DNA from: Spiroplasma alleghenense
Lineage (GTDB): Bacteria; Bacillota_I; Bacilli_A; Mycoplasmatales; Mycoplasmataceae
Direction of reading: 5' to 3'
Assembly (NCBI RefSeq): GCF_003363775.1
Contig: NZ_CP031376.1
Location: forward strand, 1,116,001-1,180,000
Length of the DNA stretch: 64,000 bases
Part shown: positions 1 to 29,933 of the stretch, one piece after another
Layout: every line of letters starts with the position of its first letter
Numbering within the stretch: position 1 is the first letter of the stretch
The notes under the pieces: generated by a model
What the model was told of the DNA's origin: nothing
The model's input: only the letters and a program-made list of their open reading frames with translations
Databases searched by the model: none
Program-made: the position numbers and the translations under genes

Positions 1-606
1 TGCTTGAGCCACCATCATATGATGATTTAACTGATAAATACTTTTGAGTTTATTGTCCCCATTAGGTAATTTAACCCCGATGATTTCCCCCAGCATTATC
101 ATGATATTTTGTTCATTGATAGTTAACCAGTATTTAACTCTATCCCCATAGTTTTCAAATAGCACTTGAGCATACTTTTCAAAAGCAGTAATAGTTTCAG
201 GATTACTTCAACCGCCCTTTTGTTCTAATGCTTCAGGTAAATCAAAGTGGTACATCGTAACAATGGGTTCAATCTTGTATTTAATTAATTCATTAATTAA
301 ATCATTGTAGAATTTAACCCCTGCACTATTAACCACCCCATCCCCATCAGGAATAATTCGCGTTCAGGCAATCGAAAAGCGATATGATTTTAAACCCATT
401 TCATGCATCATTTTAATATCAGCTTTAAAGTTATGGTAGTGGTCAACAGCTACTTTTATATCAGCCAAACTAGCATCTTTAATTGTTTTAACATCTTGGA
501 TGGACAATCCTTTACCATCAATATTTCAAGCTCCTTCAACTTGATAAGCGCTGGTGGAAGCGCCTCATAGAAAGTCTTTAGGAAATGGTTTGTTTAATTT
601 TTTCAT
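1..606 (-). CDS. 6-phospho-beta-glucosidase (GH1), copy A, 3' end outside window
   Basis: Glycoside hydrolase family 1 enzyme that cleaves PTS-imported beta-glucoside phosphates in the cytoplasm. The first 202 codons are present; the C-terminal half lies beyond the left edge. The start at 606 begins [17 protein letters not shown], the usual GH1 opening, and the catalytic acid/base lies in WLTINEQN. It is nearly identical to 22312-23721, which gives the expected full length of 469 aa. Its start overlaps the end of the upstream PTS reading frame (stop at 578) by 29 nt, as in copy B, so translation may be coupled. In this copy the IS element upstream probably weakens that coupling and may be polar. 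Substrate specificity is inferred from the PTS partner. Confidence 0.93.
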
Positions 607-1000
607 TACTGGACTCCTTACTTTTCTTTTTAGTTTTAGTTAAATTAAATGGTAATTTATCACAGAGGTTATAGTTAATTTCAATTGAGTTTAAACAATT
701 ACAATAACCATTTTTTAATTCTGTATAGTTTAAGTAATCAGGGTTAATCAACAAACAAGCAGAGATTAGACCATCCACTTCAACTAATACTTTAACAATA
801 TTTTCATCATAGGTTTGTTTAGCCAATTTAGCTTGAGTTTCTAATAAAGCTATTTGATCACTAATTTGTTTGATATCCTCTTCCTTATTAAAGTCAAGAT
901 ATAACTGGGCAGCCAAATTGTATTTAGCCAAATCCTTATCTTTTAATTTCATCGCTTTTAAATAAAGTTTATCTCTATCAGCTTCAACCCTATTAACTAG
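578..1000 (-). pseudogene. 3' fragment of PTS IIABC (coiled-coil tail), separated by the IS
   Basis: This is the last ~140 codons of the PTS gene of copy A, cut from its 5' part by the IS at 1001-2217. The frame reads NRVEADRDK... and ends at a TAA at 578, matching the tail of the intact protein at 23693-26185. It has lost its own start. An internal ATG at 952 could open a 124-aa product, but no convincing ribosome site was seen. The sequence is Lys/Glu-rich and helical with no catalytic residue, so its loss may be tolerated. Its only likely remaining role is coupled translation of the GH1 gene at 606. Confidence 0.85.
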
Positions 1001-1028
1001 TAGAATGAACCCATATTAATATGCAAAG

Positions 1029-1067
1029 AGCTTTATTGAAAAATTTCAATAAGCTTTTTATTTTTTT
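1029..1067 (+). terminator. Hairpin with T-run at the IS left end
   Basis: AGCTTTATTGAAA and TTTCAATAAGCT form a stem with one bulge, followed on the plus strand by TTTTTATTTTTTTT. It lies between the orfB stop and the terminal repeat. IS elements often carry such stems to block transcription entering from outside. Confidence 0.45.
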
Positions 1068-1917
1068 TAAATATATATCAGTTATTTCAATCAATGACAT
1101 CAGTAACGTAGGCATTAATATCTGTATATTCATTATTATGAATTGTTCCTTTCTTTAAAAGAGCGTGAAAGCTTTCAATTACAACGTTATCACTACATTG
1201 ACCGACTCTTCCCATAGAAATTTTGATCCCTTCTGCATGACATCTATTTTTGTAAGCATTTGAGATATATTGTGATCCGTGGTCAGAATGAATTATAATT
1301 CCGTTTGTGCTAGAATTAATTTTTTTTATTCTAATCACTGCAGCATTAAAATTATCTAAAACCAATTTTAAATCGTTAAATTTAGAAATTTGAAAATCTA
1401 TTATTTGTTTTGTACAAGCATCAATAATTGTTGATTGATACATTCTTTTTCCATTTAAAACTAAGTATGTTACATCTGTATATAAAACTGTAAGTTCCTT
1501 TTGAATATTATATTTTCTTTTAACCAAGTCTGGAAAATCTCAAATTTTATTTACTTTAGCTTTTCGTCTTTTGTAAATATATTTCCTGACATATTTTGAA
1601 ATAATTCCTTGTTCTTTCATAATTCTAAGTACTTTTTTATGATTAATTCTTGGTAAACCAATTGATTCGTAGTATTCGTTAGTAAATTTGGTTAATTGTC
1701 TGTAACCAAACTGTTCCTTGTTTTCTTTAAAAATTTTTCAAAGCGTATCAATATGAAATTGATCTTTAATAATCGTTCAGTCTTTATTTTTGAAACGATT
1801 TCAATAAGAACGCTTTAATTCACAAACTTCAAGTAAAATTTTTAACTTATGATCTTTTAATTCCTCACGAATGAATTCTACTTTTTGTCTTCTGTTGACT
1901 TGTAGAATTCATGGAGC
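1033..1917 (-). CDS. IS3-family transposase OrfB (made by -1 frameshift from orfA)
   Basis: Catalytic half of the transposase, with an integrase-core (rve) DDE domain: first Asp in YTDVTYL, second in IIHSDHGSQY, and Glu in SDNVVIESF, with exactly 35 residues between the last two (DD35E). The frame is -1 relative to orfA and is entered at the AAAAAAG slippery site (1923-1917), so coordinates start at the slip. The C-terminus is short: after WNNWYIFKKNKK it ends at a TAA at 1033 and lacks the usual LSPxxYR end of IS3 transposases. A truncated and possibly inactive tail is therefore possible. Confidence 0.85.
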
Positions 1918-2150
1918 TTTTTTAAAATTTCATATTTTTCCTCCAAAGAATCCATTTCTTTTTTTTGTTTATTTAGTTCCTTGTTGGGAGAAATGCTATT
2001 TCTTTCCTTATAGAATCAATCCCTGATAGTGTGGTGAGACATATTGAATTTTTTTCCTGCCACAACATTTCCCTCAGTTCTTGCATAATCCATTATTTCT
2101 TTTTTTAATTCATTAGTATAGCTGTTAAATTTTTGTCCTTTAGTTGCCAT
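1878..2150 (-). CDS. IS3-family transposase OrfA (HTH DNA-binding)
   Basis: A 90-aa protein starting MATKGQKFNSYTNELKKEI. The helix-turn-helix region contains EGNVVAGKKFNMSHHTIRDW, the usual DNA-recognition part of IS3 OrfA, followed by a Lys/Glu-rich leucine-zipper-like helix. A strong AGGAGG precedes the ATG. The A AAA AAG site near its end permits -1 slippage to produce the OrfAB fusion; without slippage translation stops at the TAG at 1878. Confidence 0.88.
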
Positions 2151-2209
2151 AAAAAAATGAACCTCCTAAATGTATTATAAGGGGTTTCCCAGATATTACA
2201 ATGGCGGGT

Positions 2210-4291
2210 TCATTCTACTAGAAGTTGCTTTTTCTGCTCTAGTTTAGCTAATTTAATAACCAATATCTCATAGACTTTATTATCGGTTAAGTTGGCTTTT
2301 TCTAATTTCAAAATTGTTTCAAAATTATTTTTTAATTCCACATTTTGATTTTCTGTGATAATATTTTTTAGCACAATTGTGTTCATTTTTTTCAAGCCAG
2401 TTATTTCACTAGGACGTTCTTTGTAAAAACAAATTGTTAAAAGCAAAGCTGATCCTAAAGCAATTCCCGCAGCACTTAATCCCATGGCAGTATTTAATGG
2501 AGTTCCAAATCCCAGGTAACTTAGAATTCCCGTTCCAGTTCTAGTTATTTGTTCAGCTCCAACAATTCCAGCAAACATTCCCCCAATAAAGGCTCCTAGA
2601 CATCCATATAAGAATGGTCATAGTTTTGGTAAGTTTACCCCAAAGATGGCAGGTTCAGTTATTCCAAAGATAGCTCCAGGAATTGAACCGTATGCTGTTT
2701 GTTTGGTTTTTTGATTACTAGTTCTTAAAGCCACAGCCAGCACAGCCCCAATTTGAGCAAACACAGCAATGTTAACAGCCACATACATAGCTGAAGGTTG
2801 AGCTGGAATTTGAGTCATTGGTAAACTAACTGCTTGAACTACCGCCACATGAGTTCCAGTTAATACTAATGGTTGTCATAACAAAGCAAAGATTCCTACC
2901 CCAATTCCTATTGGCAATTTTCCTAAGATTAAGACAAATTGTGACAATAGTTGTTCGACTATTTTTAATACCGGACCAACTGTAAACAATGTGACAATAA
3001 CAGTTACCAACATTACTAACCCAGGTCTAAAGACAATATCTACTGCTGTGGGCATTCATTTTTGGACTCACTTATCAAGATAGTAAACCACAAATCCAGC
3101 GGCCACCATTGGTAGAACAGTTCCTTCATAACTTTGGATCCCTACTGGATTACCAAAAAGATTAAATAATACCCAACTAGTTCCAAATAAATGGCGACTA
3201 GTTAATACCATTCCTACAAAAATTCCCATAATGGGATTTCCTCCTAGATATTTAACAGTGTTATAAATAAAGATTAAACCAATTAATTCTAGTCCAACTT
3301 TACCTGCAACATAGAATATTGCCGATCACAAATTTAAGTCTGCAACAGTCTCACCAAGTCCTGGAGCTTGTAAAACTCCAAAGGCCACCAGCATTGCTTG
3401 AATTCCCCCAAGAATCCCAGTTCCTAAAAGGACCGGAATAGCTGGAGTCACAATTCCTGCAACTGCGGGCATAATTTTTTTACGAAATGGGGTTTTAGTT
3501 TTAACTACTTTATCATTGCTTGTAGTTTTGTTTTCTAAGATGTTAATTACTTCATCTTTAATTTTATAAACTTCTCCCCCAATAATAACTTGGAGTTCAT
3601 CTCCGTTTTGATTCAGACCTTTAACCACTTCAATTTTTTTCAATTCATCGCAGTTAACTAATTTTTGATCAATTATTTTAATTCTCAATCGGGTCATACA
3701 GTTATAAACCGAATTTTGATTGCCTTTACCCCCAATGGCTGCCAAGATTTGTTCGGCAACTTTTTGATACTTGCCTTTACTTCTAACAATTTCAATAATT
3801 TCTTGTTGGTTGATTTTTTCCTCGTATGTTCAAACCCCAATTTTATCTCCTTGTTTCACTTTACCATTTAGTTTCAGTGCTTTAAAAACTCAGTTTTTAG
3901 TTGAATTCACATCCATTACAATTGGAGTTGCAAGTGAACATTTATTATTTTTAATTAAGTCAAAATCAACCTCTACAATTGGTGATTTTCAAGTTACGTT
4001 ATCATTGACTTGGGCCAGTAATTTATACGGAGCTCCGTTTAAGCCAACGGTTTCTAAACCAATGTGCATTAACAATTGCAGCCCATCTTCTTGTTCAAAA
4101 TAGTAAGCATGTTTGGTGTCCGCTATCAAAGCAATCTTGGCTTGACCAATTGGGGCGTGGAAAATATTTGAACTTGGTTCAATAAAAATTCCTTCACCCA
4201 AAGCTTTAGAAGCAAATGCTTCATCTTGGATAAAAGTTATATCTTTGATGACTCCATCACAGGGAGCATAAAGGTAAACTTCTTTTTTCAT
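2210..4291 (-). CDS. Beta-glucoside PTS IIABC, copy A, tail truncated by IS
   Basis: Phosphotransferase permease importing and phosphorylating a beta-glucoside. Order: IIA of the glucose type (residues ~1-150, phosphorylatable His76 in LLMHIGLE), IIB (about 170-235, Cys198 in NCMTRLR), then polytopic IIC with GAIFGITEPAIFGV. Length is 693 aa against 830 in the intact copy B (23693-26185). The frame ends at a TAG made by the IS junction just after QKKQLLV. All three catalytic domains are complete and only part of the charged coiled-coil tail is lost, so transport could survive. A good AAGGAGG site precedes the ATG. Probably controlled by the RpiR gene upstream. Confidence 0.92.
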
Positions 4292-4313
4292 AAATACCTC
4301 CTTTAAATAGAAA

Positions 4314-4340
4314 AAATTCTATAACTTAATTATAGAATTT
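4314..4340. promoter_or_regulatory. Palindromic operator candidate upstream of PTS copy A
   Basis: Perfect 11-bp inverted repeat AAATTCTATAA / TTATAGAATTT with a 5-nt spacer. It lies between the rpiR stop and the ribosome site of the PTS gene. The same arms occur at 26208-26234 with a different spacer, which suggests selection on the arms. No T-run follows, so an operator (probably for the adjacent RpiR protein) is more likely than a terminator. Confidence 0.6.
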
Positions 4341-4390
4341 AAAATATTTATTGAAAGAATTTTGAAATTGTTCTAATTTTCAAAAGTACT

Positions 4391-5149
4391 TTATAAAAGG
4401 CTTATTAAGTGGGTTAATGTATAGTTCATTTGACCATTTCTGATTAAAGCCCGAGTTTTTTTATTACTAATTACGGTTTTATTTAAAAATAAGACTGTAT
4501 TATCCTGATTAGGTATTAGTTTAGAAGTTTGAGAACTACTCCCAATAACATCATAGTTAATATTATTTAAGTCTAAAGTTTTCAAGTTTTCAAATAGTTC
4601 GCCATTATCTAAACCAACAAGTAAAACTAGAACTTCATCTTGATTGGTAATCTTATTAATGAAATTACGATCTGTTTTACGGTTGGCTGAAAAATAAACT
4701 TGTTTATCTTCTCATAAAGCATTAGCAACCAATTGACCATGATGCATTACTTCATAACTTGATAGAATAAATAATTTATCCTTGGATTTAATGTTACAAG
4801 CAATCTTTTGGATTTTATCAAATTGAGCATCAATCTCATCAATAAAAGTATTATGATCGAATTTAGAAACTACTTCATTTTTATTGCTTTCGTTATTAGT
4901 GAAATAGTTATAGTATTCTGATTCAACCATTAATCTAATATAAACTTCTCGATAGCCTTCATAACCAATTCGTTTTGAAAAAGCAGTTAAACTTGATTCT
5001 GACACAAATGCTTTTGCAGCCAGTTCTTTACTTCTTAAAAAGATGTTTTGGTCAGCGTTTCTAATGATGATTTCTGCTAAATTAGCATCAACTTTATTAA
5101 CTTTTGATGCTGCCACATTTTTTAAGACTTCTCTAATTGATTGGAACAT
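4391..5149 (-). CDS. RpiR/MurR-family transcriptional regulator, copy A
   Basis: A 252-aa sugar-responsive repressor or activator. The N-terminal HTH_6 domain (about 1-77) holds the recognition region SESSLTAFSKRIGYEGYRE; the rest is a SIS phosphosugar-binding domain (about 100-240). It is the first gene of the cassette and is read toward PTS and GH1. It is preceded by AGAGGTGATTA, a strong ribosome site, and a TATAGTAAAAT promoter-like stretch. It differs from copy B (26285-27043) by a handful of residues. The likely effector is the phosphorylated beta-glucoside or a product of it. Confidence 0.92.
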
Positions 5150-5211
5150 ATAATCACCTCTTTTGTATTTTACTATAAAGATTTTTTATAGCACAAAATT
5201 TGGTTAATAAT

Positions 5212-6024
5212 TTAAATTTTGCTTTTTAAAACTTTTTCTTTAAATCAAGGTTCTATTTTTTCAAAAACTTTTATTGCTGATTTGTTCATAAACCTAAATC
5301 ACTCAAAAATTTCACTTTTATTTACAAAAACAATAAGTTTATTTCACTGCTTGTGTTCACAAGGTTCTTCAATTCAAATAATTATTTTAATGCAAGGACC
5401 CTGCGCATCTTGATATCAGTCATGAATTGAAACATTTAGAACCGCAGTACTGAATTCTTTATATTTTTTCCTAAAAATTCTTTCATTTTTAATTTCCAAC
5501 CTATCTTTCTCTTCAGAATATTCTCAATAATCATATTTGCTAATATACTTATTTTTAATACCAATATCTATCCAACCAACTATTCGTTTGTATTCTAATT
5601 TTTTTTTATTAAGATGAGTAAATAAATGTGTATACATATTTCTTAAGGTATCAAAAAAGCCAATTTCATTATCATCGATATCGGGAATTTCACAGTTTTT
5701 AACACCTTTGATGCTTCTATACAAATCTATCAGTGTGTAGAATTTGCTAAAAATATCAACAATGTCCGAATCTGTTCTGTAATGGTCTTTTGAATAATAT
5801 TCATTTTCAGCTATTTTTCTAATGAATTTCATTTCATCAATTATTAAAGATAGAAATCTGTCCAATATACCCTTAAATAATTTTTTGATTTTTAAATTTT
5901 GCTTAAGCTTATTCACTGTGTATATTATATTATCTTTTATTTCTATATAACTAGGCTCTCCGGCAGCCAAGCTTTCTATGTCTTTTTCAATTTCTTCAAT
6001 AATATTATTTTTTGTGCTGATCAT
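5212..6024 (-). CDS. Hypothetical cytosolic protein (270 aa) in the variable slot
   Basis: Not recognised. A 270-aa protein with no signal peptide or membrane segment, mostly charged helix in the first 190 residues (MISTKNNIIEEIEKDIESL...), and a Trp-rich C-terminal part (IHDWYQDAQGPC, IIIWIEEPCEHKQW) made visible only by reading TGA as Trp. A weak AGGAAAAA precedes the ATG at 6024. It sits between rpiR copy A and a lipoprotein, exactly where copy B of the cassette has a KAP NTPase. That position suggests accessory, possibly defensive, cargo, but nothing in the sequence proves it. Confidence 0.75.
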
Positions 6025-6188
6025 TTAATTTTTCCTATTTATTTTCTAATAGTTATATTTTACATTTTTATAAAAGCAAATCAAAATATGTTCCTTAAAG
6101 CTCGATTTAATTATTAAATAGATTTTATTAAAAACAGTTTTGATTTTTAAATTTTAAATTAATATTACCTTCTTCAATTTGTAATTAT

Positions 6189-6217
6189 TTTACTCTCCCA
6201 TTGATATTTAGTATAAT
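6189..6217 (+). promoter_or_regulatory. Promoter of lipoprotein gene 6246
   Basis: TTTACT (-35) and TATAAT (-10) with 17-bp spacing. The same sequence with the same spacing lies ahead of the related lipoprotein at 29334. Confidence 0.7.
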
Positions 6218-6245
6218 TAATATAGAAAATAACAAGGAGTTAATC

Positions 6246-6851
6246 ATGAGAAAAATCTTAAATACCCTAGCAATCCTTTTACCAACCCTGATGACAAGTG
6301 CTAGTGTTGTGTCTTGTATAGATACTAGAACTGATATTAATAAAAATGTGGAAGTTCGCGATCTAGGATATTTAGAAAATCTTAAAAACGAAACGGTGCT
6401 TAATGCCTTTAGAGAAAAAAATCCTAAGGCGAAACATGATTTACTATATTTTGACGGAGACTCTAACAAAGGAGTAATTAGTTCGGTTGCTGTAAAATTT
6501 TATAAAGGAGAAATTAACGTCACTTATAAAACTAAAATTAGTTTTATGGAAATAGATAGTAACGATGACGAATACTTTTGTGAAATTAATAGTTATGAGG
6601 ATGAATGTGTTGTTGATACCAAACTATTAGTTAGTAAGGAAGAAATTAGCGATGAGGATAAAACTAATTTTGGAATACAAACTATGGAGGAGTTATCATT
6701 AAGAAGCGAACTAATAGATGACAGAAATATAAAAATGCACTTTTATATTGATGAAAATAAACCCTTTAGAAATCAACACAGAAATCGAGTTTTAATAAGA
6801 TGATATGATGCCTTTGTTTGATGATGTCAAATCTATGTTGATATTAAATAA
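6246..6851 (+). CDS. Lipoprotein, family DLGYLENL
   Basis: A 201-aa surface lipoprotein. The signal peptide MRKILNTLAILLPTLMTS ends in the lipobox SVVSC, and the mature part begins DTRTDINKNVEVRDLGYLENL. The start at 6246 is chosen because AAGGAG lies 7 nt upstream and it gives the signal peptide; an in-frame ATG at 6201 lacks both. Near residues 50-65 it has LNAFREKNPKAKHD, then beta-rich stretches (YKGEINVTYKTKISF) reminiscent of spiralin-like repeats (inference). Relatives in this window lie at 6881, 7520, 9253, 10006 and 29334. Function unknown. Confidence 0.85.
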
Positions 6852-6880: not shown

Positions 6881-7482
6881 ATGAAAAAATCTTAAATACC
6901 CTAGCAATAGTAATACCAACTTTAATGACAAGTGCTAATGCTGTGTCTTGTGCTGATACTCGAATTGATATTAATAGAAATGTTGAAATTCGAGATTTAG
7001 GATATTTAGAAAATCTTGAAGAGCAAACCATTTTAAATGCCTTTAGAGAGAAAAATCCCAAGGCCAAACATGATTCTCTATATTTTTATGGGGATACTAA
7101 TAAAGGAACTATTAGATCAGTCGCTGCTATATTTTATAAGGGAGAAATTAGAATTACTTATACTTCTAAAATTAGTTTTATAAAAATGGATAACGATGAT
7201 GAATGTTTTTGTGAAATTAATAAATTTGAAGAGGAATGCGTTAGTGAAGCAAAACTTTTAGTTGATAAAGGAGAAATTAGCCAAAAGGAGAAAAATAATT
7301 TTAGTATTTGAGGCATGGATGAATTGTCATTAAGATATGAGCTAATAGATAACAAAGATTTGAAAATGTACTTTTATGTTGATAAAAATAAACCTTTTAT
7401 AAATCAAGGCAAAAAACAAGTTGTTATCAAGTGATATGATGCTTATGCTTGAGAATGTGACATTTATGTTGATATAAAATAG
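6881..7482 (+). pseudogene. Lipoprotein gene frameshifted at codon 2
   Basis: Paralogue of 6246-6851. The ATG at 6881 follows AAGGAG but runs ATG AAA AAA TCT TAA. The neighbour reads ATG AGA AAA ATC TTA, so one base is missing next to a run of six A. From codon 3 onward the other frame is fully open to a TAG at 7480 and encodes the expected signal peptide, ANAVSC lipobox and mature domain. Gain of one A would restore it, so phase variation by slippage is possible. No alternative start with a ribosome site was found. Confidence 0.85.
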
Positions 7483-7520
7483 AAAATAGCGCTAAAGTAA
7501 TTTCGCGCTATTTTATTTTT
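7483..7520. terminator. Bidirectional terminator between convergent lipoprotein genes
   Basis: AAAATAGCG... / CGCGCTATTTT stem followed by ATTTTTT. It serves the plus-strand gene ending at 7482 and the minus-strand gene ending at 7520. A copy of the whole region lies at 9152-9283. Confidence 0.8.
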
Positions 7521-8143
7521 TAATCTAAATCAAATACAATATTACATCGAATTAGTGTTGCGATATGTCATTTAATACGAAAGTAGTAATTATATTCGGG
7601 TTTTACCTCATAGTCTTCTTTTAAAATCGCTTTAATATTATAAGCATCTCCTTTTTCATTGATATTCTGAGATAAATCGAAATTATCATATAGACTTTCT
7701 GATATTTCTATCGCTTTGTCTTTTTCTGGATCATAGGTTGAATCTAGAATTGAAATATCTAGTTCACAGGTTTTATTAGTTTTTGAAACTATACAATCAA
7801 TTTCATTGGACTCACCCTTTGTCTTATAAGCAAGTTTTGAATTAAAAGAAATTTCTACAAACCCTTTATACCTGTTTAGGTAAGCTGGATGAAGTCCAAC
7901 TTTGGCTTCATAGCTTTTAATATTACCACTAAATTGGAAGGCTTCTTCCATTCCCTCTGCTTTGGGATTATTATTTACTAGACTTTTTATTATTTCTTCT
8001 GAACTCAAGTTTTCAACAAAACCCAATTCAGTCACTTCAATTAATTCGTTAATATCTATCCTTTCATCAACACAAGATACTACTTGATTTGATAAAAATA
8101 TTGCCGGACTAATTACGGCTAGTGTTTTTAAAATTTTTCTCAT
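7520..8143 (-). CDS. Lipoprotein paired with cysteine peptidase 8155
   Basis: A 207-aa lipoprotein: signal peptide MRKILKTLAVISPAIFLS, lipobox QVVSC, then DERIDINELIEVTELGFVENL. Same family as 6246, with LVNNNPKAEG and a later HPAYLNRYKGFVEISF beta segment. Ends with WHIATLIRCNIVFDLD; the Trp is a TGA codon. It starts 11 nt after the stop of the cysteine peptidase gene and is transcribed with it. The same pairing is seen at 10006/10636. It could be a surface receptor, substrate-binding partner or inhibitor of the peptidase; the sequence does not decide. Confidence 0.85.
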
Positions 8144-8154
8144 TTTTTATTCCT

Positions 8155-9021
8155 TTAATAAGGATCAACATTTTTGAAAGTTAAACCTTTTTTTTCTAAT
8201 TCTGTTCAAGTATACATCTTACCATCATATTGAAATCTTGGCTTTGGAGCTAACGCTTTTTTAGATTTGGGGTAAAAAGCATTTCAGAATCCTAATGAAA
8301 AATAGGATCAAACATCGCTTTTCTTAATAATCACAGCCGAGTATCGTTCTCACGAGTTACCCGGTCATCCTCAATGAACTAAATAACTTTTGGTTTTTTT
8401 ATCGTAGCCGTAAATCACAACATTGTGAGCAACGCCTTTGGCTGCAAACGAGAGCATGACAGGTACATTATTTTGCATCATTTTAGTTTCTGGTTTAGAC
8501 GAGTGCATAGTAGAGGTACAAGATTTAATGTGAATTCTCTTTTTTATTTCTTTGCTTTTAATAAATTCTCTTAAGGTATCGTCAACACCACCACCAAATT
8601 TAATATTAATTTTTTTTCCATTTAAAATAAATAATTTTGCTACCAATGATTCCTCCTTTTTGTCATATTCTGCATTTTCATGATATGGCATATTAATAAA
8701 TTTTCCTATTTTTTTCTGCAAATCAAAATAATGATCTCATTCGCCTTCGGTAAAATAACCCGAATTGCAAAATAATTCTTGGTAAGTCATTAAAGTGGAA
8801 AGCGAAATATATTCACATAATCCTATTCCGCTTACCCCTTTTAGACCTTCTGCATCAATGTAGCCAATTGCGTTATAAGAATGAAGTTTGGTTAATCATT
8901 CATAATTAGGTACAAGGTATGAAAATTTTTTAATCTCTTCATCAGTAGCGAAGCGACCTAGCTCTAGGTCCCCTCCTTGATTCTTATTAAAGTTTATTTT
9001 ATTACTAAATTTATTTTTCAT
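8155..9021 (-). CDS. Putative papain-like cysteine peptidase
   Basis: 288 aa. Catalytic Cys69 in GIGLCEYISLSTLMTYQ, His in GVAHNVVIYGYDKKTKS, followed by LVHWGWPGNSW, resembling the H-x-(V/A)-x-x-x-GY and W-N/G-W pattern of staphopain/C39-like peptidases (family knowledge). The Mollicutes group has a recognised class of putative cysteine peptidases of this kind. There is no N-terminal signal peptide (MKNKFSNKINFNKN), so it is either cytoplasmic or exported by an unusual route. First gene of a two-gene operon with the lipoprotein at 7520. Start fixed by AAAAGGAG upstream and by identity with 10636-11508. Confidence 0.75.
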
Positions 9022-9060
9022 AAAAAACTCCTTTTTATTTTTAAGTTAATACCAAGAAAA

Positions 9061-9111
9061 AACATTAATTTCTCTTAATAATATTATAAACCTTATATAA
9101 GGTAAATGAAA
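9061..9111 (-). promoter_or_regulatory. Promoter with CCTTATATAAGG palindrome, peptidase 1
   Basis: On the minus strand TATAAT (9088-9083) lies just downstream of the perfect 12-bp palindrome CCTTATATAAGG (9091-9102), which would sit in the spacer between -35 and -10. The same arrangement occurs at 9961-9999 and 11560-11600. This is a likely shared operator. Confidence 0.6.
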
Positions 9112-9151
9112 TGAAAACTTTTTGGTAATAAAAAGGGTTTTGTAGAAATTG

Positions 9152-9215
9152 AGTTGTTATCAAGTGATATGATGCTCATGCTTGGGAATGTGACATTTAT
9201 GTTGATATAAAATAG
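9152..9215 (+). pseudogene. 3' remnant of a plus-strand lipoprotein gene
   Basis: The last ~20 codons of a gene like the one ending at 7482 (VIKWYDAHAWECDIYVDIK then TAG), followed by the same terminator. No upstream coding sequence remains. It shows that the block 7417-7550 was copied here and that the body of the gene was lost. Confidence 0.75.
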
Positions 9216-9254
9216 AAAATAGCGCGAAAGTAATTTCGCGCTATTTTATTTTTT
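9216..9254. terminator. Bidirectional terminator, copy
   Basis: AAAATAGCGCGAAA / TTTCGCGCTATTTT perfect stem with ATTTTTT; second copy of the terminator at 7483-7520. Confidence 0.8.
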
Positions 9255-9876
9255 AATCTAAATCAAATACAATATTACATGCCACTAAAGAAGCATCATG
9301 TCAATGAACATATAAGTTATAATTATAACTTGGATTTATTTCATGACCTTCTTTTAAAGTCGCTTTAATATTATAAGCATCCTTATTATCATTCAAGGTT
9401 TTAGTGACTATGAAATCATCATTTAGATCTTCTCTTAATTTTATAGGTTCATCTTTTACTTCATCATAGGTAGGATCAAGAATTGAGATATCTAATTCAC
9501 AACTAGTATTAGTTTTTGAAATCACACACTCAGTTTTAAATGAGTCATCTTTTGTTTTATAAGCAAGTTTTGAATTATAACCAATCTTTGCATAACCTTT
9601 ATAGATTTTGCTATATGCTGGATGGGTTCCAACTTTTGCATCATAACTTTTAGTATTATCTCTGAAATCTAAGATATCTTCCATCCCTTCGGTTTTAGGA
9701 TTATGTTCAATTATGCTTTTTTTAATTTCATCATAACTCAAGTGTTCGATAAAACCTAGTTCTGTGGTTTCGATTAATTCGTTAATATCAATTCTCTCGT
9801 CAACACAAGATACTACTTGATTTGATAAAAATATTGCCGGACTGATTACCGCAAGTGTTTTTATAATTTTTTTCAT
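9253..9876 (-). CDS. Lipoprotein (orphan; its peptidase gene is deleted)
   Basis: A 207-aa paralogue of 7520-8143: signal peptide MKKIIKTLAVISPAIFLS, QVVSC lipobox, DERIDINELIETTELGF. Ends WHDASLVACNIVFDLD. A C-terminal scrap of the cysteine peptidase gene (9889-9926) lies just upstream, directly joined to the peptidase-type promoter. The partner gene has been deleted and the lipoprotein is now the first gene after the promoter. Confidence 0.85.
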
Positions 9877-9888
9877 TTTTTGTTCCTC

Positions 9889-9926
9889 TTAATAAGGGTC
9901 AACATTTTTAAAAGTTAAACCTTTTT
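9889..9926 (-). pseudogene. C-terminal remnant of a third cysteine peptidase gene
   Basis: Encodes only GLTFKNVDPY and a stop, identical in sense to the last codons of 8155-9021. Immediately upstream the sequence becomes the leader and promoter of the peptidase genes. About 840 bp of coding sequence have been lost between an A-rich stretch and the leader. Confidence 0.75.
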
Positions 9927-9960
9927 AGTTTTAAGTTAATACCGAGAAACTAAGTATTAA

Positions 9961-9999
9961 TTTCTCTTAATAATATTATAAACCTTATATAAGATAATC
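9961..9999 (-). promoter_or_regulatory. Promoter copy with near-palindrome CCTTATATAAGA
   Basis: Matches the promoters at 9061 and 11560, but the last base of the palindrome is changed (CCTTATATAAGA at 9983-9994). It drives the orphan lipoprotein 9253-9876. Confidence 0.55.
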
Positions 10000-10005
10000 A
10001 AATCG

Positions 10006-10623
10006 CTATTTTACAATGATGTTGCATTCAACAAATGTCGCATAGTATCAATGAACTCTAAAAGAATAATCGAAATTTAGATTTAGTTCAGCTTCTTTAA
10101 CTTTAGAAACATAAACCCTGTAAACACCGTCTTCCTTAATTAACTCTTTGCTGGTTTGAATAAAATCCTCATTGTAATTATCAACATTAATATCTTTATC
10201 TTTTTGTAAATCATAACTGGAATCTAGAATTGAAATATCTATTTCACAACTGCTACTTTCATTTGAAATTACACAATCAAATTGATTTGAATCATCTTTT
10301 GTTTTATATCCTAGTTTTGAATTATAAGAAATATCTACAAATCCTTTATATTTATTGTGATAAGCGGGATGCACTCCCATTTTAGCACTATAACTTGTAA
10401 AGTCACCTTCTAACATAAAAATATTGCCCAGACCATGGGTTTTAGGATTTTTTAGAATTAGGGTTTGATTTATTGTATCCAAACTTAAGTTTTCAATATA
10501 ACCCAAGTCTGTCACTTCAACTAGTTCATTAATATCAATTCGATTATCAACACAAGATACTACTTGATTTGATAGAAATACCACAGGACTAATTACTGCC
10601 AGTATTTTTAAAATTTTTTTCAT
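10006..10623 (-). CDS. Lipoprotein paired with cysteine peptidase 10636
   Basis: 205 aa: signal peptide MKKILKILAVISPVVFLS, QVVSC lipobox, DNRIDINELVEVTDLGYIENL, then NPKTHGLGNIF and HPAYHNKYKGFVDISY. Ends at a TAG inside CTATTTTAC. It lies 12 nt after the peptidase stop, the same arrangement as 7520/8155. More diverged from the other two relatives than they are from each other. Function unknown. Confidence 0.85.
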
Positions 10624-10635
10624 TTTTTTGTTCCT

Positions 10636-11508
10636 TTAATAAGGTTCAACATCTTTGAAAGTTAAACCTTTTTTCTCCAATTCGTTTCACGTATACATTT
10701 TTCCATCGAATTCAAATCTTGGTTTTGGAGATTTAGCTTTTTTTGATTTAGTATAAAAAGCATTTCAAAATCCCAATGATAAGTATTGTCAGACAAGAAG
10801 TTTTGGAATAATAACAGCAGAAAACCTTTCGCCATTTTCGGTAGGTCATCCTCAGTGTACTAGATAACTTTTAGTTTTTTTATTATATCCATAAATTACA
10901 ACATTATGCGCAATTCCAGGCAGGGCAAAAGATAACATAACTGGAACGTTGTTTTTTATCATTTTAGTCTCTGGCTGAGACGTGTGCATAGTTGATCAGC
11001 ATGATTTAATGTGAATTCTATCTTTAATTTCTTTACCTTCAAGAAACTCCCTTAAAGTGTGATCTACTCCGCCCCCAAATTTAATATCAATTTTTTTATC
11101 GTTAAGATTTCATAACTTTGTCACCAAAGAGTTTTCTTTGGAACTTCAATTATGATATCTGTGATACGGCATGTTTATAAATTTACCGATCTTTGTCTGA
11201 AGTGCAAAATAGTCTTTTCATTCAGAATCGGTAAAGTAGCCAGAATTACAAAATAATTCTTGATAAGTCATTAGTGTTGCAAGCGAAATATACTCGCACA
11301 ATCCGGTACTATTTCCGCTGCTATCTTTCATTCCTGCAGCGTTAGTGAACCCTAAGGCTTCATATGATTGTAGTTTAACTAACCATTCATAATTTGGAAC
11401 CAGATAGGAAAACTTTTTAATTTCTTCATCTGTTGCGAAGCGACCTATCTTCAGAGATCCTCCCTCATTTTTGTTAAAGTCAATTTTATTACTAAATTTA
11501 TTTTTCAT
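10636..11508 (-). CDS. Putative papain-like cysteine peptidase, second copy
   Basis: 290 aa, about three quarters identical to 8155-9021 by eye. Cys71 in STGLCEYISLATLMTYQ, His in GIAHNVVIYGYNKKTKS, then VHWGWPTENGERFSAV. It carries conserved FNKNEGG and GRFATDEEIKKFSYLVPNY near the N-terminus and no signal peptide. The frame is fully open with Trp encoded by TGA. It is first in a two-gene unit with lipoprotein 10006. Confidence 0.75.
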
Positions 11509-22311: not shown

Positions 22312-23721
22312 TTACCCCAATTTCTCCCCATTACTTTTAATAACCTCTTGGTATCAATAAGAGCTTTTCTTACGATAGCGTTTTAAATCCAAAATTTCTT
22401 TATCACTACGATTAACATAAATAAATCCATAGCGTTTTTTAATTCCTTCATGAGTTGAGACTAAATCTATAGCACTTCAAGGATTATAGCCAAATACTTG
22501 TACTCCATCATTGATAGCTTCTTTGATTTGAAAGATATGTTCTTGGTAGTATTTAATACGATAATCATCATTGATTTGATGATTTTTATCTAAACTATCA
22601 TAACCCCCAATCCCATTCTCAGTTACTAGTAATGGTAAGTTATAACGTTCATAGATTTCTTTTAAAGTATTTTTAAAACCAATAGGATCTATTTCTCATC
22701 CAAATTCAGTTTTATTTAAACTATCATTGCTAACTTGTTGATACATTCCTGCCACACTTCTAACTCGTTGTTGGTCAGTTAATTGACTAAAGTCTAAATC
22801 TGATTCAGGAAATTTCACAGTTGCCGAAGCATAGTAGTTAAAAGCAATAAAGTCAGGTTGAGCTTGTTTTAAGACTTCTAAATCATCCACTTGGATTTCA
22901 AATAAAGCATCTTGTTTTTCTAAGTACGCTAACGCTATGGGATTATAAACTCCTTTTACAGCCACATCCAAGTAAAACCAGTTACGCATAATTCTCATAT
23001 TTAAAGCAGCAGTGGCATCTTCGGGTTTATTTGAATCACTATAAATGGCTGAGATATTTGGTGCGGGTCCAATTTTAGCGTTGGCTAGCATTTTGTGACA
23101 CAACACCATCACCTTTGCTTGGGCCACCATCATATGATGATTTAACTGATAAATACTTTTGAGTTTATTTCCCCCATCAGGTAATTTAACCCCAATAATT
23201 TCACCCAGCATTATCATGATATTTTGTTCATTGATAGTTAACCAGTATTTAACTCTATCCCCATAGTTTTCAAATAGCACTTGAGCATACTTTTCAAAAG
23301 CAGTAATAGTTTCACGATTACTTCAACCACCCTTTTGTTCTAAAGCATCAGATAAATCAAAGTGGTACATCGTAACAATGGGTTCAATCTGATATTTTAT
23401 TAATTCATTAATTAAATCATTGTAGAATTTAATCCCAGCACTATTAACTTCCCCATCACCATCAGGAATAATTCGCGTTCAGGCAATTGAAAAGCGATAT
23501 GATTTTAAACCCATTTCATGCATCATTTTAATATCAGCTTTAAATTTATGGTAGTGGTCAACCGCTACTTTTATATCAGCTAAACTAGCATCTTTAATTG
23601 GTTTAACATCTTGGATAGACAATCCTTTACCATCAACATTTCAAGCTCCCTCAACTTGATAAGCACTGGTGGATGCTCCTCATAAAAAGTCTTTAGGAAA
23701 TGGTTTGTTTAATTTTTTCAT
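22312..23721 (-). CDS. 6-phospho-beta-glucosidase (GH1), copy B
   Basis: 469 aa, complete. [17 protein letters not shown] opening, acid/base in [18 protein letters not shown], and nucleophile in LLVTENGIGG; the C-terminus ends SNGEKLG. It cleaves beta-glucoside 6-phosphates made by the PTS at 23693, whose reading frame overlaps this start by 29 nt. Near-identical to the partial copy at 1-606 and clearly related to the lone GH1 at 46416. Confidence 0.95.
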
Positions 23722-26185
23722 TACTAGCCTCCTTACTTTTCTTTTTAGTTTTAGTTAAATTAAATGGTAATTTATCACAGAGGTTATAGTTAATTTCAAT
23801 TGAGTTTAAACAATTACAATAACCATTTTTTAATTCTGTATAGTTTAAGTAATCAGGATTAATCAACAAACAAGCAGAGATTAGACCATCTACTTCAACT
23901 AATACTTTACCAATATTTTCATCATAGGTTTGTTTTGCTATTTTAGCTTGACTTTCTAATAAAGCAATTTGATCACTTATTTGTTTGATATCCTCATCCT
24001 TATTAAAATCAAGATATAACTGGGCTGTGATATTGTATTTAGCCAAATCCTTATCTTTTAATTTCATTGCTTTTAAATAAAGTTTATCTCTATCAGCTTC
24101 AACCCTATTAACTAGAAGTTGTTTTTTCTGCTCTAGTTTAGCTAATTTAATAACCAATCTCTCATAGACTTTATTATCGGTTAAGTTGGCTTTTTCTAAT
24201 TTCAAAATTGTTTCAAAATTATTTTTTAATTCCACATTTTGATTTTCTGTGATAATATTTTTTAGCACAATTGTGTTCATTTTTTTCAAGCCAGCAATTT
24301 CACTAGGACGTTCTTTGTAAAAACAAATTGTTAATAGTAAAGCTGATCCTAAAGCAATTCCCGCAGCACTTAATCCCATGGCGGTATTTAATGGAGTTCC
24401 AAATCCTAAGTAACTTAGAATTCCTGTTCCCGTTCTAGTTATTTGTTCAGCTCCAACAATTCCAGCAAACATTCCCCCAATAAAGGCTCCTAGACATCCA
24501 TGTAAGAAAGGTCACAGTTTTGGTAAGTTTACCCCAAAGATTGCTGGTTCAGTTATTCCAAAAATAGCTCCTGGAATTGAACCGTATGCTGTTTGTTTGG
24601 TTTTTTGATTACTAGTTCTTAGGGCCACAGCCAGTACAGCCCCAATTTGAGCAAAAACAGCAATGTTAACAGCCACATACATAGCTGAAGGTTGAGCTGG
24701 AATTTGAGTCATTGGTAAACTAACTGCTTGAACTACCGCCACATGAGTTCCAGTTAATACTAATGGTTGTCATAACAAAGCAAAGATTCCTACCCCAATT
24801 CCTATTGGCAATTTTCCTAAGATTAAGACAAATTGTGATAATAGTTGTTCGACTATTTTTAATATTGGACCAACTGTAAACAATGTGACAATAACAGTTA
24901 CCAACATTACTAATCCTGGTCGAAAGACAATGTCTACTGCTGTGGGCATTCATTTTTGAACTCATTTATCAAGATAGTAAACCACAAATCCAGCGGCCAC
25001 CATTGGTAGAACAGTTCCTTCATAACTTTGGATACCTACTGGATTACCAAAGAGATTAAATAAAACCCAACTAGTTCCAAATAAATGGCGACTAGTTAAT
25101 ACCATTCCTACAAAGATTCCCATGATGGGATTTCCTCCCAGATATTTAACAGTATTGTAAATAAAGATTAAACCAATTAATTCCAATCCAACTTTACCAA
25201 CAACATAAAATATTGCCGATCACAAATTTAAGTCCGCAACAGTCTCTCCAAGTCCTGGAGCTTGTAAAACTCCAAAGGCCACCAGCATTGCTTGAATCCC
25301 CCCAAGTATTCCAGTTCCTAAAAGTACTGGAATAGCTGGAGTTACAATTCCTGCAACTGCGGGCATAATTTTTTTACGAAATGGGGTTTTAGTTTTAACT
25401 ACTTTATCATTGCTTGTAGTTTTGTTTTCTAAGATGTTTATTACTTCATCTTTAATTTTATAAACTTCTCCCCCAATAATAACTTGGAGTTCATCCCCAT
25501 TTTGATTCAGACCTTTAACCACTTCAATTTTTTTCAATTCATCGTAGTTAACTAATTTCTGATCAATTATTTTAATTCTCAATCGGGTCATACAGTTATA
25601 AACCGAATTTTGATTGCCTTTGCCCCCAACGGCTGCTAAGATTTGTTCAGCAACCTTTTGATACTTGCCTTTACTTCTAACAATTTCAATAATTTCTTGT
25701 TGATTGATTTTTTCCTCGTATGTTCAAACCCCAATTTTATCTCCTTGTTTCACTTTACCATTTAGTTTTAGTGCTTTAAAAACTCAGTTTTTAGTTGAAT
25801 TAACATCCATTACAATTGGAGTTGCAAGTGAATATTTATTTTTTTTAATTAAGTCAAAATTCACTTCTACAATTGGTGATTTTCAAGTTACGTTATCATT
25901 GACTTGGGCCAGTAATTTATATGGAGCTCCGTTTAAACCAACGGTTTCTAAACCAATGTGCATTAACAATTGCAACCCATCTTCTTGTTCAAAATAGTAA
26001 GCATGTTTGGTGTCGGCTATCAAAGCAATCTTGGCTTGACCAATTGGGGCGTGGAAAATATTTGAACTTGGTTCAATAAAAATTCCTTCACCCAAAGCTT
26101 TAGAAGCAAACGCTTCATCTTGGATCAAAGTTATATCTTTGATGACTCCATCACAGGGAGCATAAAGGTAAACTTCTTTTTTCAT
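23693..26185 (-). CDS. Beta-glucoside PTS IIABC, copy B (intact)
   Basis: 830 aa. IIA (His76 in LLMHIGLE), IIB (Cys198 in NCMTRLR), IIC from about 240 to 600 with GAIFGITEPAIFGV, then a ~200-residue charged helical tail (EKANLTDNKVYERLVIKLAKL...). The domain order IIA-IIB-IIC differs from the common B-C-A order of beta-glucoside permeases. The tail is absent from typical family members. Preceded by AAGGAGG and the palindrome at 26208. Confidence 0.95.
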
Positions 26186-26207
26186 AAATACCTCCTTTAA
26201 ATAGAAA

Positions 26208-26234
26208 AAATTCTATAAATAAATTATAGAATTT
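26208..26234. promoter_or_regulatory. Palindromic operator candidate upstream of PTS copy B
   Basis: Same arms as 4314-4340 (AAATTCTATAA / TTATAGAATTT) but spacer ATAAA instead of CTTAA. Conservation of the arms with a changed spacer supports a dimeric protein site. Confidence 0.6.
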
Positions 26235-26284
26235 GAAATATTTATTAAAAGGATTTTGAAATTGTTCTAATTTTCAAAAGTACT

Positions 26285-27043
26285 TTATAAAAGACTTATT
26301 AGGTGGGTTAATGTATAGTTCATTTGACCATTTCGGATTAAAGCGCGAGTTTTTTTATTACTAATTACGGTTTTATTTAGGAACAAGACTGTATTATCCT
26401 GATTGGGTATTAGTTTAGAAGTTTGAGAACTACTTCCAATAACATCATAGTTAATATTATTTAAGTCTAAAGTTTTCAAGTTTTCAAATAACTCACCGTT
26501 GTCTAAACCAACAAGTAAAACCAGAACTTCATCTTGATTGGTTATCTTATTAATGAAATTACGATCAGTTTTACGGTTAGCTGAAAAATAAACTTGTTTA
26601 TCTTCTCATAAAGCATTAGCAACCAATTGACCATGATGCATTACTTCATAACTTGACAGAATAAATAATTTATCCTTGGATTTAATGTTACTAGCAATCT
26701 TTTGGATTTTATCAAATTGAGCATCAATCTCATCAATAAAGGTATTATGATCGAATTTAGAAACTATTTCATTTTTATTGCTTTCGTTATTAGTGAAATA
26801 GTTATAGTATTCTGATTCAACCATTAATCTAATATAAACTTCTCGATAACCTTCATAGCCAATTCGTTTTGAAAAAGCAGTTAAACTTGATTCTGAAACA
26901 AATGCTTTAGCAGCCAGTTCCTTACTTCTTAAAAAAATGTTTTGGTCAGCGTGCCTAATTATAATTTCTGCCAAATTAGCATCAACTTTATTAACTTTTG
27001 ATGATGCCACATTTTTCAAGACTTCTCTAATTGATTGAAACAT
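26285..27043 (-). CDS. RpiR/MurR-family transcriptional regulator, copy B
   Basis: 252 aa, HTH_6 plus SIS domain, differing from copy A by only a few residues (for example ASSK for AASK near position 15 and NADQ/HADQ). Leader and ribosome site AGAGGTGATTACATG are the same. Presumably both copies recognise both palindromes, so the two cassettes are cross-regulated. Confidence 0.92.
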
Positions 27044-27079
27044 GTAATCACCTCTTTTGTATTTTACTATAAAGATTTC

Positions 27080-29107
27080 CTAAGATTCCTCAAAAATTGT
27101 AATCAATTTTGGTAACATGTTGGATCAATCATCATTTAGAATGACTTGATTTCCTTTTCCGTTCATTCTAGGGTTTAATGAACTTTTTTCGTCATAAATA
27201 TAATTAATGGCTTCGGTTTGCTTTATTTGATAATAAATATTTTCGTGGATTAAAATAAAATCTTTTTTTAACAAATTTACCAGTCATTTTGTTTCGTCTT
27301 CTGATACAACATCACCCTCCATCATTATGCGGTGGAAAAAATCTGCAATAAAGTTAAACCCCTCTATTTTTAGAAAAAATTTTATAAATTTATTAATATT
27401 TTGTTCCTTATTTTCTCTAATCAAGTTTGACATAATTATTTTATTATTATGGTCTTTGAAAATATCTCCATCAATTTTAATTAAATTGATACCTTTTTTG
27501 GAGTAATTGCCTAAAACTTCTATATCTTCATTATTTCAATGTTCTCTAATTATTTCAAAATTTTTCATAAGTTCAAAAAAGTCATCTATATTAAAATCTT
27601 TTTTTAAAAAATAATCTCCTTCAAAAAATAATGATGATCACATATTATTAAAATTGTTGATAAAATCGTGCTTATGTCTATAATTTTTAAATCCAATTTT
27701 TCCTAATAAAAATTCCTTAATTTCATGCGCTTGTCTCTTAGTGGTGCTTTCATAAAATAATTTTCAATCCGATTCAAATATTTGTTTAGAATAAAATTCG
27801 CTCGAAATTTTGGTTTCATTTAATGTTATCCATCTTTTAAACAATTTTTCAAAATTTAAAAGGCCTGAATAAGAGTATTTGAAAGAGTCTTTTTCAAAAA
27901 ATAATTGAAAGCAATTTTCCAAATCATAAGTTTCTATTTTTTCAACCAAGGTTTTAGGGTTTAATATAAATTCAAAAATAAATTCCAAATCTTCTTCACA
28001 AGAAAAAACAAAATCACCCATCTTGTTCGATTCGGACCAAATAAATTTAAATTCTTCTTTAAAAAGAACACCTCTATATTTGTCAATTATTGGATTTCTA
28101 GAAACATAAAATAGGTTATTTATATCAGATGAGTTGTTTTCATTAATAAACTTTTTGTCAAGTTCAAAAAGAAGTTCATCGTTGTAGATCTTAGGTTTGT
28201 GTTCAAATTGTTCCAATATTTTGGAATAAAGTCCCTTTTCAAAATGGTATAAATAACTTATAGCTATAATATTTTTTATTTTAAAAAATTTTTCTATTAT
28301 TTTATTTTTATCAACTTTATCAAGATTGTCAAAAAGAGCGATAAACTTTTCTATTTCTCTAAACTTGTCGCTTTTTTTTACTCTTTCTACAAATTCATAG
28401 TCTATATTTTCACTCAAAATAATACTACTGTTTATTTTTTTTAGAACATCCTCCTGACTTGGTTTTTTAAGAAATACCTTATCAAAATTTTTTGACTCAA
28501 AATCTATACTTAATAGATCACATTCAGAACTATCAATCATTATTAAAACCGTCTTCTTGTTTTTATTTAATAATCTTTCAAATAAATTATAAATCTCTTT
28601 TTTCTTATCAAGCGAACTTATTCTATTTAAGTCGTCAACCACCACTCACATGCATTTTCTAATTTTTTTTGATAATACATTCATATCGTTTAGATAAAAT
28701 AGTTTTCAAATCAAGGTGATGATAAAAAGGGCTATAGAAATTCCGATTGGTATGCTAATATAAACTAATTCCACTTTTTCAATAAAATTAATAAAAAAAA
28801 CAGAGATCGTGGCAATAAGTGCTACAGCAAAATTTAAAACAGAAATTATTGAAACGAAAAAAGGACCTTTACTTCATCCCCATACTGCTCATTTTGGAAA
28901 ACAAGTTTTTAATACAGTTTCTGCAACATTGTCTGAGTTTGCCAAAATATTTGCATCGACTCTCAAAATTTTTTTCTTATTATCTAAAAATTCATTAATA
29001 GAGGTAGTCTTTCCACTTCCGAATTCCCCTTTTATCAGTATCCGTTGTTTTTTACCTTCTTCGTTTATTTTGTTTTTATAGTCTTGGCTTTTTCTTGCTA
29101 TTTCCAT
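27080..29107 (-). CDS. KAP-family P-loop NTPase
   Basis: 675 aa. Walker A GEFGSGKTTS at 27-36; two membrane helices at about 82-107 and 115-139; Walker B VVVDDLNRI at 155-163. Two membrane segments placed between Walker A and Walker B are the defining feature of membrane KAP NTPases. The C-terminal ~500 residues are charged helix without known motif. AGAGGTGATTA precedes the ATG. Bacterial KAP proteins include phage-exclusion proteins such as PifA (family knowledge), so a defence role is plausible. It occupies the slot beside rpiR that holds an unrelated gene in copy A. Confidence 0.8.
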
Positions 29108-29276
29108 TATTAATCACCTCTATTTATATAATATTATATTTATATATAATTATCTTATTTTAATTAAAAGTTTATATTTCATTATTTAGAATCTTTTAAA
29201 ATTCTTGGTTGTTTATAAATAAAAACGAACAAGTAATTTAGTTTTAAACAAAAATTAAGGTTATACTTCTAATTAT

Positions 29277-29305
29277 TTTACTCTTTCATTGATATTTAGT
29301 ATAAT
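29277..29305 (+). promoter_or_regulatory. Promoter of lipoprotein gene 29334
   Basis: TTTACT and TATAAT with 17-bp spacing, nearly identical to 6189-6217. Confidence 0.7.
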
Positions 29306-29333
29306 TAATATATAAAATAACAGTGAGTCAATC

Positions 29334-29933
29334 ATGAGAAAAATCTTAAGTACTCTATCAATCCTTATACCAACCTTAGTAGCAAGCAATAGAGTTGTAT
29401 CGTGTATAGGTAGAACCGATATTAATAAAAATGTACAAGTTCGAGATTTAGGATATTTAGAAAATCTTAAAAGCGAAACAGTTCTGAACGCCTTTAGAGA
29501 GAAAAATCCCAGAGCCCAACATGATTACTTAATTTTTGGTGGAGATACCCATAAAGGAGTTATTAGATCCTATGCAACAAAAGCTTATAAAGGAGAAATT
29601 AACGTTACTTATACTACTAAAATTAGTTTTATGAAGATTAATAGTGAAGATGAATACTTTTGTGAAATTAATAGTTTTGAGGATGAGTGTGTTGTTGAGG
29701 CAAAACTACTAGTACCCAAAGAAGAAATTAGCGAGCAAGATAAGATTGATTTCAGCTTCGCTGTTAAGGATGATTTGTCACTAAGATATGAGTTAATAGA
29801 TGACCTGGATGTGAAAATATACTTTTTTATTGATAAGAATAAGCCCTTTAAAAATAAAGATACTAACCGAGTTTACATTAGGTGATATGGTAACTGAGTC
29901 TGAATATCTGAAATTTATGTTGATATAAAATAA
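29334..29933 (+). CDS. Lipoprotein, close relative of 6246
   Basis: 199 aa. Signal peptide MRKILSTLSILIPTLVAS, lipobox RVVSC, then GRTDINKNVQVRDLGYLENL and LNAFREKNPRAQHD. C-terminus WYGNWVWISEIYVDIK with TGA-encoded Trp. The promoter, leader and 5' half closely match 6246-6851, so the homology between the two loci resumes here after the variable slot. Function unknown. Confidence 0.85.

What the first reader, a model, noticed from the sequence alone, without database searches (positions are those of the whole stretch)
5150..6245. Variable gene slot between rpiR and a conserved lipoprotein promoter
In copy A this slot holds a 270-aa unknown protein; in copy B the same slot (27044-29333) holds a 675-aa KAP NTPase. 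The flanks match on both sides: the rpiR leader on one, the lipoprotein promoter and 5' half on the other. Exchange of unrelated genes between constant borders is typical of accessory or defence hotspots.
Basis: partly seen in the sequence, partly recalled or inferred. Interest (0 to 1): 0.7.

Follow-up and report, generated by a model that had tools for sequence, protein, structure and literature searches.

The report
Two-copy slot with candidate defence genes
Two copies of a sugar-uptake operon in a Spiroplasma-like bacterium each sit next to a different, possibly anti-viral gene in the same gap before a related surface-lipoprotein gene; the swap is real, but it is seen only within this one genome, so it is an interesting local variable slot and not a proven defence hotspot.

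Summary
Copies A (1-5184) and B (22313-27078) of a bglA-bglF-rpiR operon are 95-96% identical, from the bglA stop to 35 bp before rpiR. Each is head-to-head with a related lipoprotein gene (78%) with a conserved 67-bp promoter (90%). The rpiR leader and the lipoprotein promoter each occur exactly twice in the 1.34-Mb genome, linked both times. Between them the genes are unrelated: a 270-aa orphan (A) and a 675-aa membrane P-loop NTPase (B).

The B gene has KAP-like architecture. The A gene has only a weak HEPN-like signature (R-N-x3-H, low-confidence helical model). Copy A's other side is a real defence cluster (OLD/AbiLi-like, AbiJ-kinase, type II restriction). Against a conserved hotspot: no other genome has this rpiR-lipoprotein pair (best rpiR 39%), DNA methylases show no excess within 10 kb of rpiR genes, and defence genes lie on both sides of related operons. 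The two borders also differ in age (dS 0.15-0.25 against 0.81).

Best reading: a duplicated operon-lipoprotein module inside a defence-rich accessory region, with a different single-gene cargo gained in each divergent-promoter gap. In two orthologous operon sets the neighbours are also completely different. New member of a known kind.

The parts
5212..6024 (-). slot A cargo: 270-aa orphan protein, weak HEPN-like signature (RNMYTH at residues 128-133)
   Evidence: ORF under code 4; no Pfam/PADLOC/NCBIfam/PHROGs family; no relative in 60 family genomes, and the weak hits among 320 order genomes are chance; nothing in GTDB contigs, plasmids, phages or IMG/VR; motif in the last predicted N-terminal helix of a low-confidence model
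27080..29107 (-). slot B cargo: 675-aa P-loop NTPase, KAP-like architecture (Walker A GEFGSGKTT, two membrane helices, Walker B VVVDDLNRI)
   Evidence: relatives only in G037 (26%) and G032 (33%, partial) of 60 genomes
4391..5149 (-). rpiR-family regulator, copy A
   Evidence: HTH_6 2.3e-10; 98% to copy B, dS 0.25
26285..27043 (-). rpiR-family regulator, copy B
5150..5184 (-). conserved rpiR leader, left border of slot A
   Evidence: homology ends here; leader unique to the two copies
27044..27078 (-). conserved rpiR leader, left border of slot B; ends next to the KAP-like stop codon
6179..6245 (+). lipoprotein promoter and RBS, right border of slot A
   Evidence: 89.6% over 67 bp; promoter pattern at 2 places in the genome
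29267..29333 (+). lipoprotein promoter and RBS, right border of slot B
6246..6851 (+). lipoprotein A1 (tandem paralogue follows at 6925-7482)
   Evidence: 70% aa to the B copy, dS 0.81
29334..29933 (+). lipoprotein B
2105..4291 (-). bglF-like beta-glucoside PTS IIABC, copy A, interrupted at its 3' end by an IS-like element
23693..26185 (-). bglF-like beta-glucoside PTS IIABC, copy B, intact
   Evidence: TIGR01995 1.8e-103
22312..23721 (-). bglA-like 6-phospho-beta-glucosidase, copy B; operon homology ends at its stop codon
1004..2216 (-). IS3-like element inside copy A bglF (12-bp terminal inverted repeats, 4-bp CTAG duplication)

Best explanation
A module made of a beta-glucoside operon (rpiR-bglF-bglA) head-to-head with a surface-lipoprotein gene exists twice in this genome, about 22 kb apart in direct orientation, inside an accessory region that also holds defence genes. 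The gap between the two outward-facing promoters tolerates insertions because they break no gene. Each copy gained a different single-gene cargo there, reading toward rpiR: a membrane-anchored KAP-type NTPase in B, and a small protein in A that may be a HEPN-type RNase. The likely role of both cargoes is stand-alone anti-phage or abortive-infection function. In A, phage-triggered RNA cleavage by the R-N-x3-H helix would stop growth; in B, ATP-driven conformational change at the membrane would sense or block phage entry. Shown: duplication, borders, linkage, unrelated cargo, P-loop and membrane-helix anatomy, defence neighbours. Inferred: insertion as the event, the order of events, the HEPN assignment, any defence activity.
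For: Border homology and its sharp ends. Each border element is found exactly twice and linked. Cargo genes are single-copy, AT-rich and rare. KAP-like anatomy: Walker A, two helices, DDLNR. HEPN motif rule Rx4-6H with N after R (PMC3710099); motif in the last N-terminal helix. Copy A's other side holds OLD/AbiLi-like, AbiJ_NTD3-kinase and type II restriction genes. A relative of the B NTPase lies directly downstream of a related rpiR-bglF-bglA operon in G032, with a ThsB-TIR gene and an MkoA-like helicase gene nearby. Orthologous operons elsewhere also have swapped neighbours: G031/G044, and the G000/G001/G002 rpiR-aquaporin set with a KAP gene in G002.
Against: Only two copies in one genome; no outgroup with an empty slot. 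The dS of the borders differs about fourfold, so one joint duplication needs later homogenisation of the operons, yet identity along the operon is uniform. No insertion scar, integrase or target duplication at the slot edges. The HEPN call rests on one motif (1% of shuffles, but 2 of 45 window ORFs carry it) and a poor model (pLDDT 51; no fold match). The B protein misses Pfam KAP_NTPase. PADLOC has neither cargo.
Confidence: 0.5

Rival explanations
1. The operon, not the slot, is the moving unit: a sharply bounded rpiR-bglF-bglA cassette was copied or acquired next to an older pair of duplicated lipoproteins, and the differing neighbour genes are just the old context. No slot is being exchanged.
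For: Homology ends exactly at the bglA stop and the rpiR leader, with uniform 91-99% identity. Operon dS is far below lipoprotein dS. Orthologous operons in G031 and G044 (82-90% identical) share no flanking gene on either side.
Against: Landing twice, in the same orientation, beside the only two promoters of this lipoprotein type in 1.34 Mb is unlikely unless the lipoprotein was part of the unit or guided it.
Confidence: 0.3
2. A true chromosomal defence hotspot, conserved in the genus, between rpiR and the lipoprotein: the two copies show its turnover directly.
For: Two unrelated candidate defence genes at one position; upstream genes of three G000 rpiR copies, two in G032 and one in G002 look defence-like.
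Against: No orthologous rpiR-lipoprotein pair elsewhere; C5 methylases not enriched within 10 kb of rpiR genes; PADLOC hits on both sides of 30 related operons; three other G000 bgl operons have no defence neighbour.
Confidence: 0.15
3. The cargo genes are not defence genes: lineage-specific orphans or a toxin-antitoxin-like or envelope function in ordinary rapidly evolving intergenic DNA. (This is about the cargo's role and can be true together with any of the origin scenarios.)
For: Neither cargo matches a defence model; the 270-aa protein has no relative anywhere searched and no confident fold.
Against: KAP-like anatomy and defence-rich neighbourhood.
Confidence: 0.3

Closest known systems
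[quoted passage not shown] 2022, PMC9122126)
   Same: Small 1-5 kb interval with different cargo between homologous anchors; candidate defence proteins.
   Different: Here chromosomal, two in-genome copies only, anchors not conserved in related genomes, no phage or satellite genes at the slot.
Chromosomal defence islands
   Same: Copy A adjoins OLD/AbiLi-like, AbiJ-kinase and type II restriction genes within about 20 kb.
   Different: Defence genes alternate with beta-glucoside operons and lipoprotein arrays; copy B's neighbourhood beyond the slot shows none.
KAP P-loop NTPases (Pfam PF07693; F-plasmid PifA is the classic anti-phage example, own knowledge)
   Same: Walker A, two membrane helices inserted before Walker B with DDLNR.
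   Different: No significant match to the Pfam model; long unrelated C-terminal part; no solved relative.
HEPN superfamily RNases (Anantharaman et al. 2013, PMC3710099)
   Same: R-N-x3-H motif in the last helix of an N-terminal helical region.
   Different: No profile match, low-confidence model, extra C-terminal alpha/beta part, no relatives to show that the motif is conserved.

Membership tests
Defence hotspot (as in PMC9122126) | Same two anchor genes conserved across genomes | tested here: not met
   Best rpiR elsewhere 39%; lipoprotein neighbours differ in G001/G002; no relative of rpiR in GTDB contigs
Defence hotspot (as in PMC9122126) | High turnover of cargo between the anchors | tested here: inconclusive
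   Two copies, two unrelated genes; n = 2 within one genome
Defence hotspot (as in PMC9122126) | Cargo is anti-phage | not testable with these tools
   No defence model match for either cargo; activity needs an experiment
KAP P-loop NTPase | Walker A and Walker B (DDxxR) motifs | tested here: met
   GEFGSGKTT and VVVDDLNRI; core residues invariant in three relatives
KAP P-loop NTPase | Two membrane helices inserted between Walker A and Walker B | tested here: met
   Long hydrophobic helices 82-109 and 115-137 in the model, model confidence low
KAP P-loop NTPase | Match to Pfam PF07693 | tested here: not met
   No PF07693 hit up to E 1; best is AAA_22 at 4.9e-4, below cut-off
HEPN RNase | Rx4-6H motif with a polar residue after R | tested here: met
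   RNMYTH at 128-133; RN...H in 1% of shuffles; rule from PMC3710099
HEPN RNase | All-helical HEPN fold or profile match | tested here: inconclusive
   Helical N-terminus but pLDDT 51, no fold match; no profile match

The most novel reading that the evidence does not exclude
rpiR-controlled beta-glucoside operons act as carriers and docking sites for stand-alone defence genes across the Spiroplasmataceae: the promoter-facing side of the operon is a preferred insertion point, so sugar operons and immunity genes travel and duplicate together.
Probability: 0.1. Interest if true: 0.6.

Novelty: new member of a known kind. Interest (0 to 1): 0.38.

Why it matters
If the cargoes are anti-phage genes, the locus gives two new candidate single-gene systems from mollicutes, where only part of the immune repertoire has been described, and a natural duplicate in which cargo turnover can be read between matched borders. 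It also shows how repeated sugar operons can serve as direct repeats around accessory genes in small genomes.

Tried and rejected
Relatives of the 270-aa protein: the order-wide hits (E 1e-3 to 0.1) are chance on inspection; nothing in GTDB contigs, phages, plasmids or IMG/VR. Fold searches with both models gave no significant match, as expected from low confidence. General rpiR-defence association: tested with C5 methylases, 2 seen against 2.55 expected within 10 kb; 11 against 4.7 within 20 kb, but those hits include orthologous methylases near orthologous rpiR genes in related genomes, so they are not independent. Upstream-only bias at 30 related bgl operons: PADLOC hits appear on both sides, so rejected; the output counts families and not proteins, so it is only a rough test. 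AAA_21 hits are mostly ABC ATPases and were not used. An AbiH-like reading of L066:11980-12966 (motif ILGNGFE) found no model support. Gene conversion as patches of near-identity along the operon was not seen.

Full report
What is there. The window lies in a 1.34-Mb, 28.7% GC genome read with code 4, Spiroplasma-like by content. Two direct copies of a beta-glucoside operon (rpiR, bglF, bglA, all on the minus strand) lie about 22 kb apart. With the upstream genome added, the homology runs exactly from the bglA stop codon (-802 / 22313) to 35 bp before the rpiR start (5184 / 27078), 95-96% identical and uniform along its length. Copy A is broken only by an IS3-like element of about 1.2 kb in bglF, with 12-bp terminal inverted repeats and a CTAG duplication.

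Borders. To the right of each slot a lipoprotein gene points the other way. Its promoter/RBS stretch is 89.6% identical over 67 bp and the gene 78%. The promoter pattern, allowing three mismatches, occurs twice in the whole genome and nowhere else; the rpiR 5' end plus leader also occurs twice. Both pairs are linked in the same orientation. They are not the same age by synonymous change: dS 0.15-0.25 for bglF, bglA and rpiR against 0.81 for the lipoprotein pair (0.59 for the tandem pair in A). Either the operons were homogenised after a joint duplication, or the operon copy is younger than the lipoprotein pair.

Slot A, 5212-6024 (-), 270 aa. No family in Pfam, PADLOC, NCBIfam or PHROGs, no relative in 60 family genomes, only chance hits in 320 order genomes, and none in GTDB contigs, IMG/VR, plasmids or phages. 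It has one R-N-x3-H motif (128-133); RN...H arises in 1% of shuffles of its own residues, but another of the 45 larger window ORFs also has one, so the motif alone is weak. In the low-confidence model (pLDDT 51) the motif sits in the last helix of an N-terminal helical part, as in HEPN RNases (motif rule in PMC3710099). No fold match. I call it HEPN-like at about one in three.

Slot B, 27080-29107 (-), 675 aa. Walker A GEFGSGKTT, two long hydrophobic helices, then VVVDDLNRI, the layout of KAP NTPases (own knowledge). Pfam KAP_NTPase is not matched; the best P-loop hit is AAA_22 at 4.9e-4, below its cut-off. Two distant relatives among 60 genomes, in G037 and G032. In G032 it lies directly downstream of another rpiR-bglF-bglA operon, with a ThsB-like TIR gene and an MkoA-like helicase gene nearby.

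Neighbourhood. On the far side of copy A, within about 17 kb, are an AAA_21+TOPRIM protein (OLD/AbiLi/AriA-like), an AbiJ_NTD3-kinase directly upstream of a third rpiR gene, and a MutH-like type II restriction enzyme with a C5 methylase. So copy A adjoins a defence cluster. Three other bgl operons of this genome have none.

Related genomes. No genome held has this rpiR (best 39%; none in GTDB contigs). The related lipoprotein has other upstream neighbours in the two same-genus genomes: a C10 peptidase in G001, a PTS gene in G002. Two orthologous operon sets could be compared: G031 and G044 (operon 82-90% identical; ABC transporter against a HATPase+Z1 gene set upstream, and different genes downstream), and rpiR-aquaporin in G000, G001 and G002 (membrane proteins, a helicase-like set, and a KAP NTPase respectively). 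These show that neighbours of bgl operons turn over on both sides. A test of C5 methylases against rpiR positions was flat at 10 kb. In 30 related operons PADLOC hits occurred both upstream and downstream. So there is no sign that the rpiR side is special in the family.

Conclusion. A real two-copy variable gap between outward promoters, in an accessory, defence-rich part of the chromosome, with one NTPase of recognisable architecture and one orphan of possible RNase type. Best explained by duplication of an operon-lipoprotein module and separate gain of single-gene cargo. A conserved defence hotspot is not shown.

Noticed in passing
1004-2216: IS3-like element in copy A bglF with inverted repeats TAGAATGAACCC and a CTAG duplication; its second ORF is only 195 aa.
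   Followed up: partly
L065:4983-9052 and L070:86-6884 (just left of the window): Defence cluster next to copy A: OLD/AbiLi-like nuclease, AbiJ_NTD3-kinase, MutH-like restriction enzyme, C5 methylase, DUF3800 protein, interleaved with another rpiR-GH1-PTS operon.
   Followed up: yes
7520-11508: Repeated pairs of a lipoprotein and a C10-type (streptopain-like) cysteine peptidase; similar pairs recur in G001 and G002 (L066, L067, L068), perhaps protease-partner sets.
   Followed up: partly
L068:10496-10762 and L068:18564-19919 (G002): A C-terminal fragment of a PTS gene lies on the far side of an 8-kb lipoprotein-ABC transporter block, as if the block arrived with a duplication of the PTS end.
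   Followed up: no
L115 and L116 (G031, G044): Orthologous rpiR-bglF-GH1 operon with completely different genes on both sides; in G044 a HATPase + Z1-domain gene set lies upstream.
   Followed up: yes
L126:4438-6985 (G035): Two unknown proteins (406 and 444 aa) upstream of an rpiR-bgl operon; the 406-aa one has a GSYAIN stretch that recalls nucleotidyltransferases; no Pfam match.
   Followed up: partly
L105:10496-13014 (G002): KAP NTPase (PF07693, 3.4e-12) plus a 372-aa membrane protein directly upstream of an aquaporin-rpiR pair; a similar two-gene set in G039 (L110:6040-8858).
   Followed up: partly
49582-55784: Three-gene block of large secreted or membrane proteins with paralogous blocks at L080:837-7111 and in G001 (L066:357-5611).
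   Followed up: no
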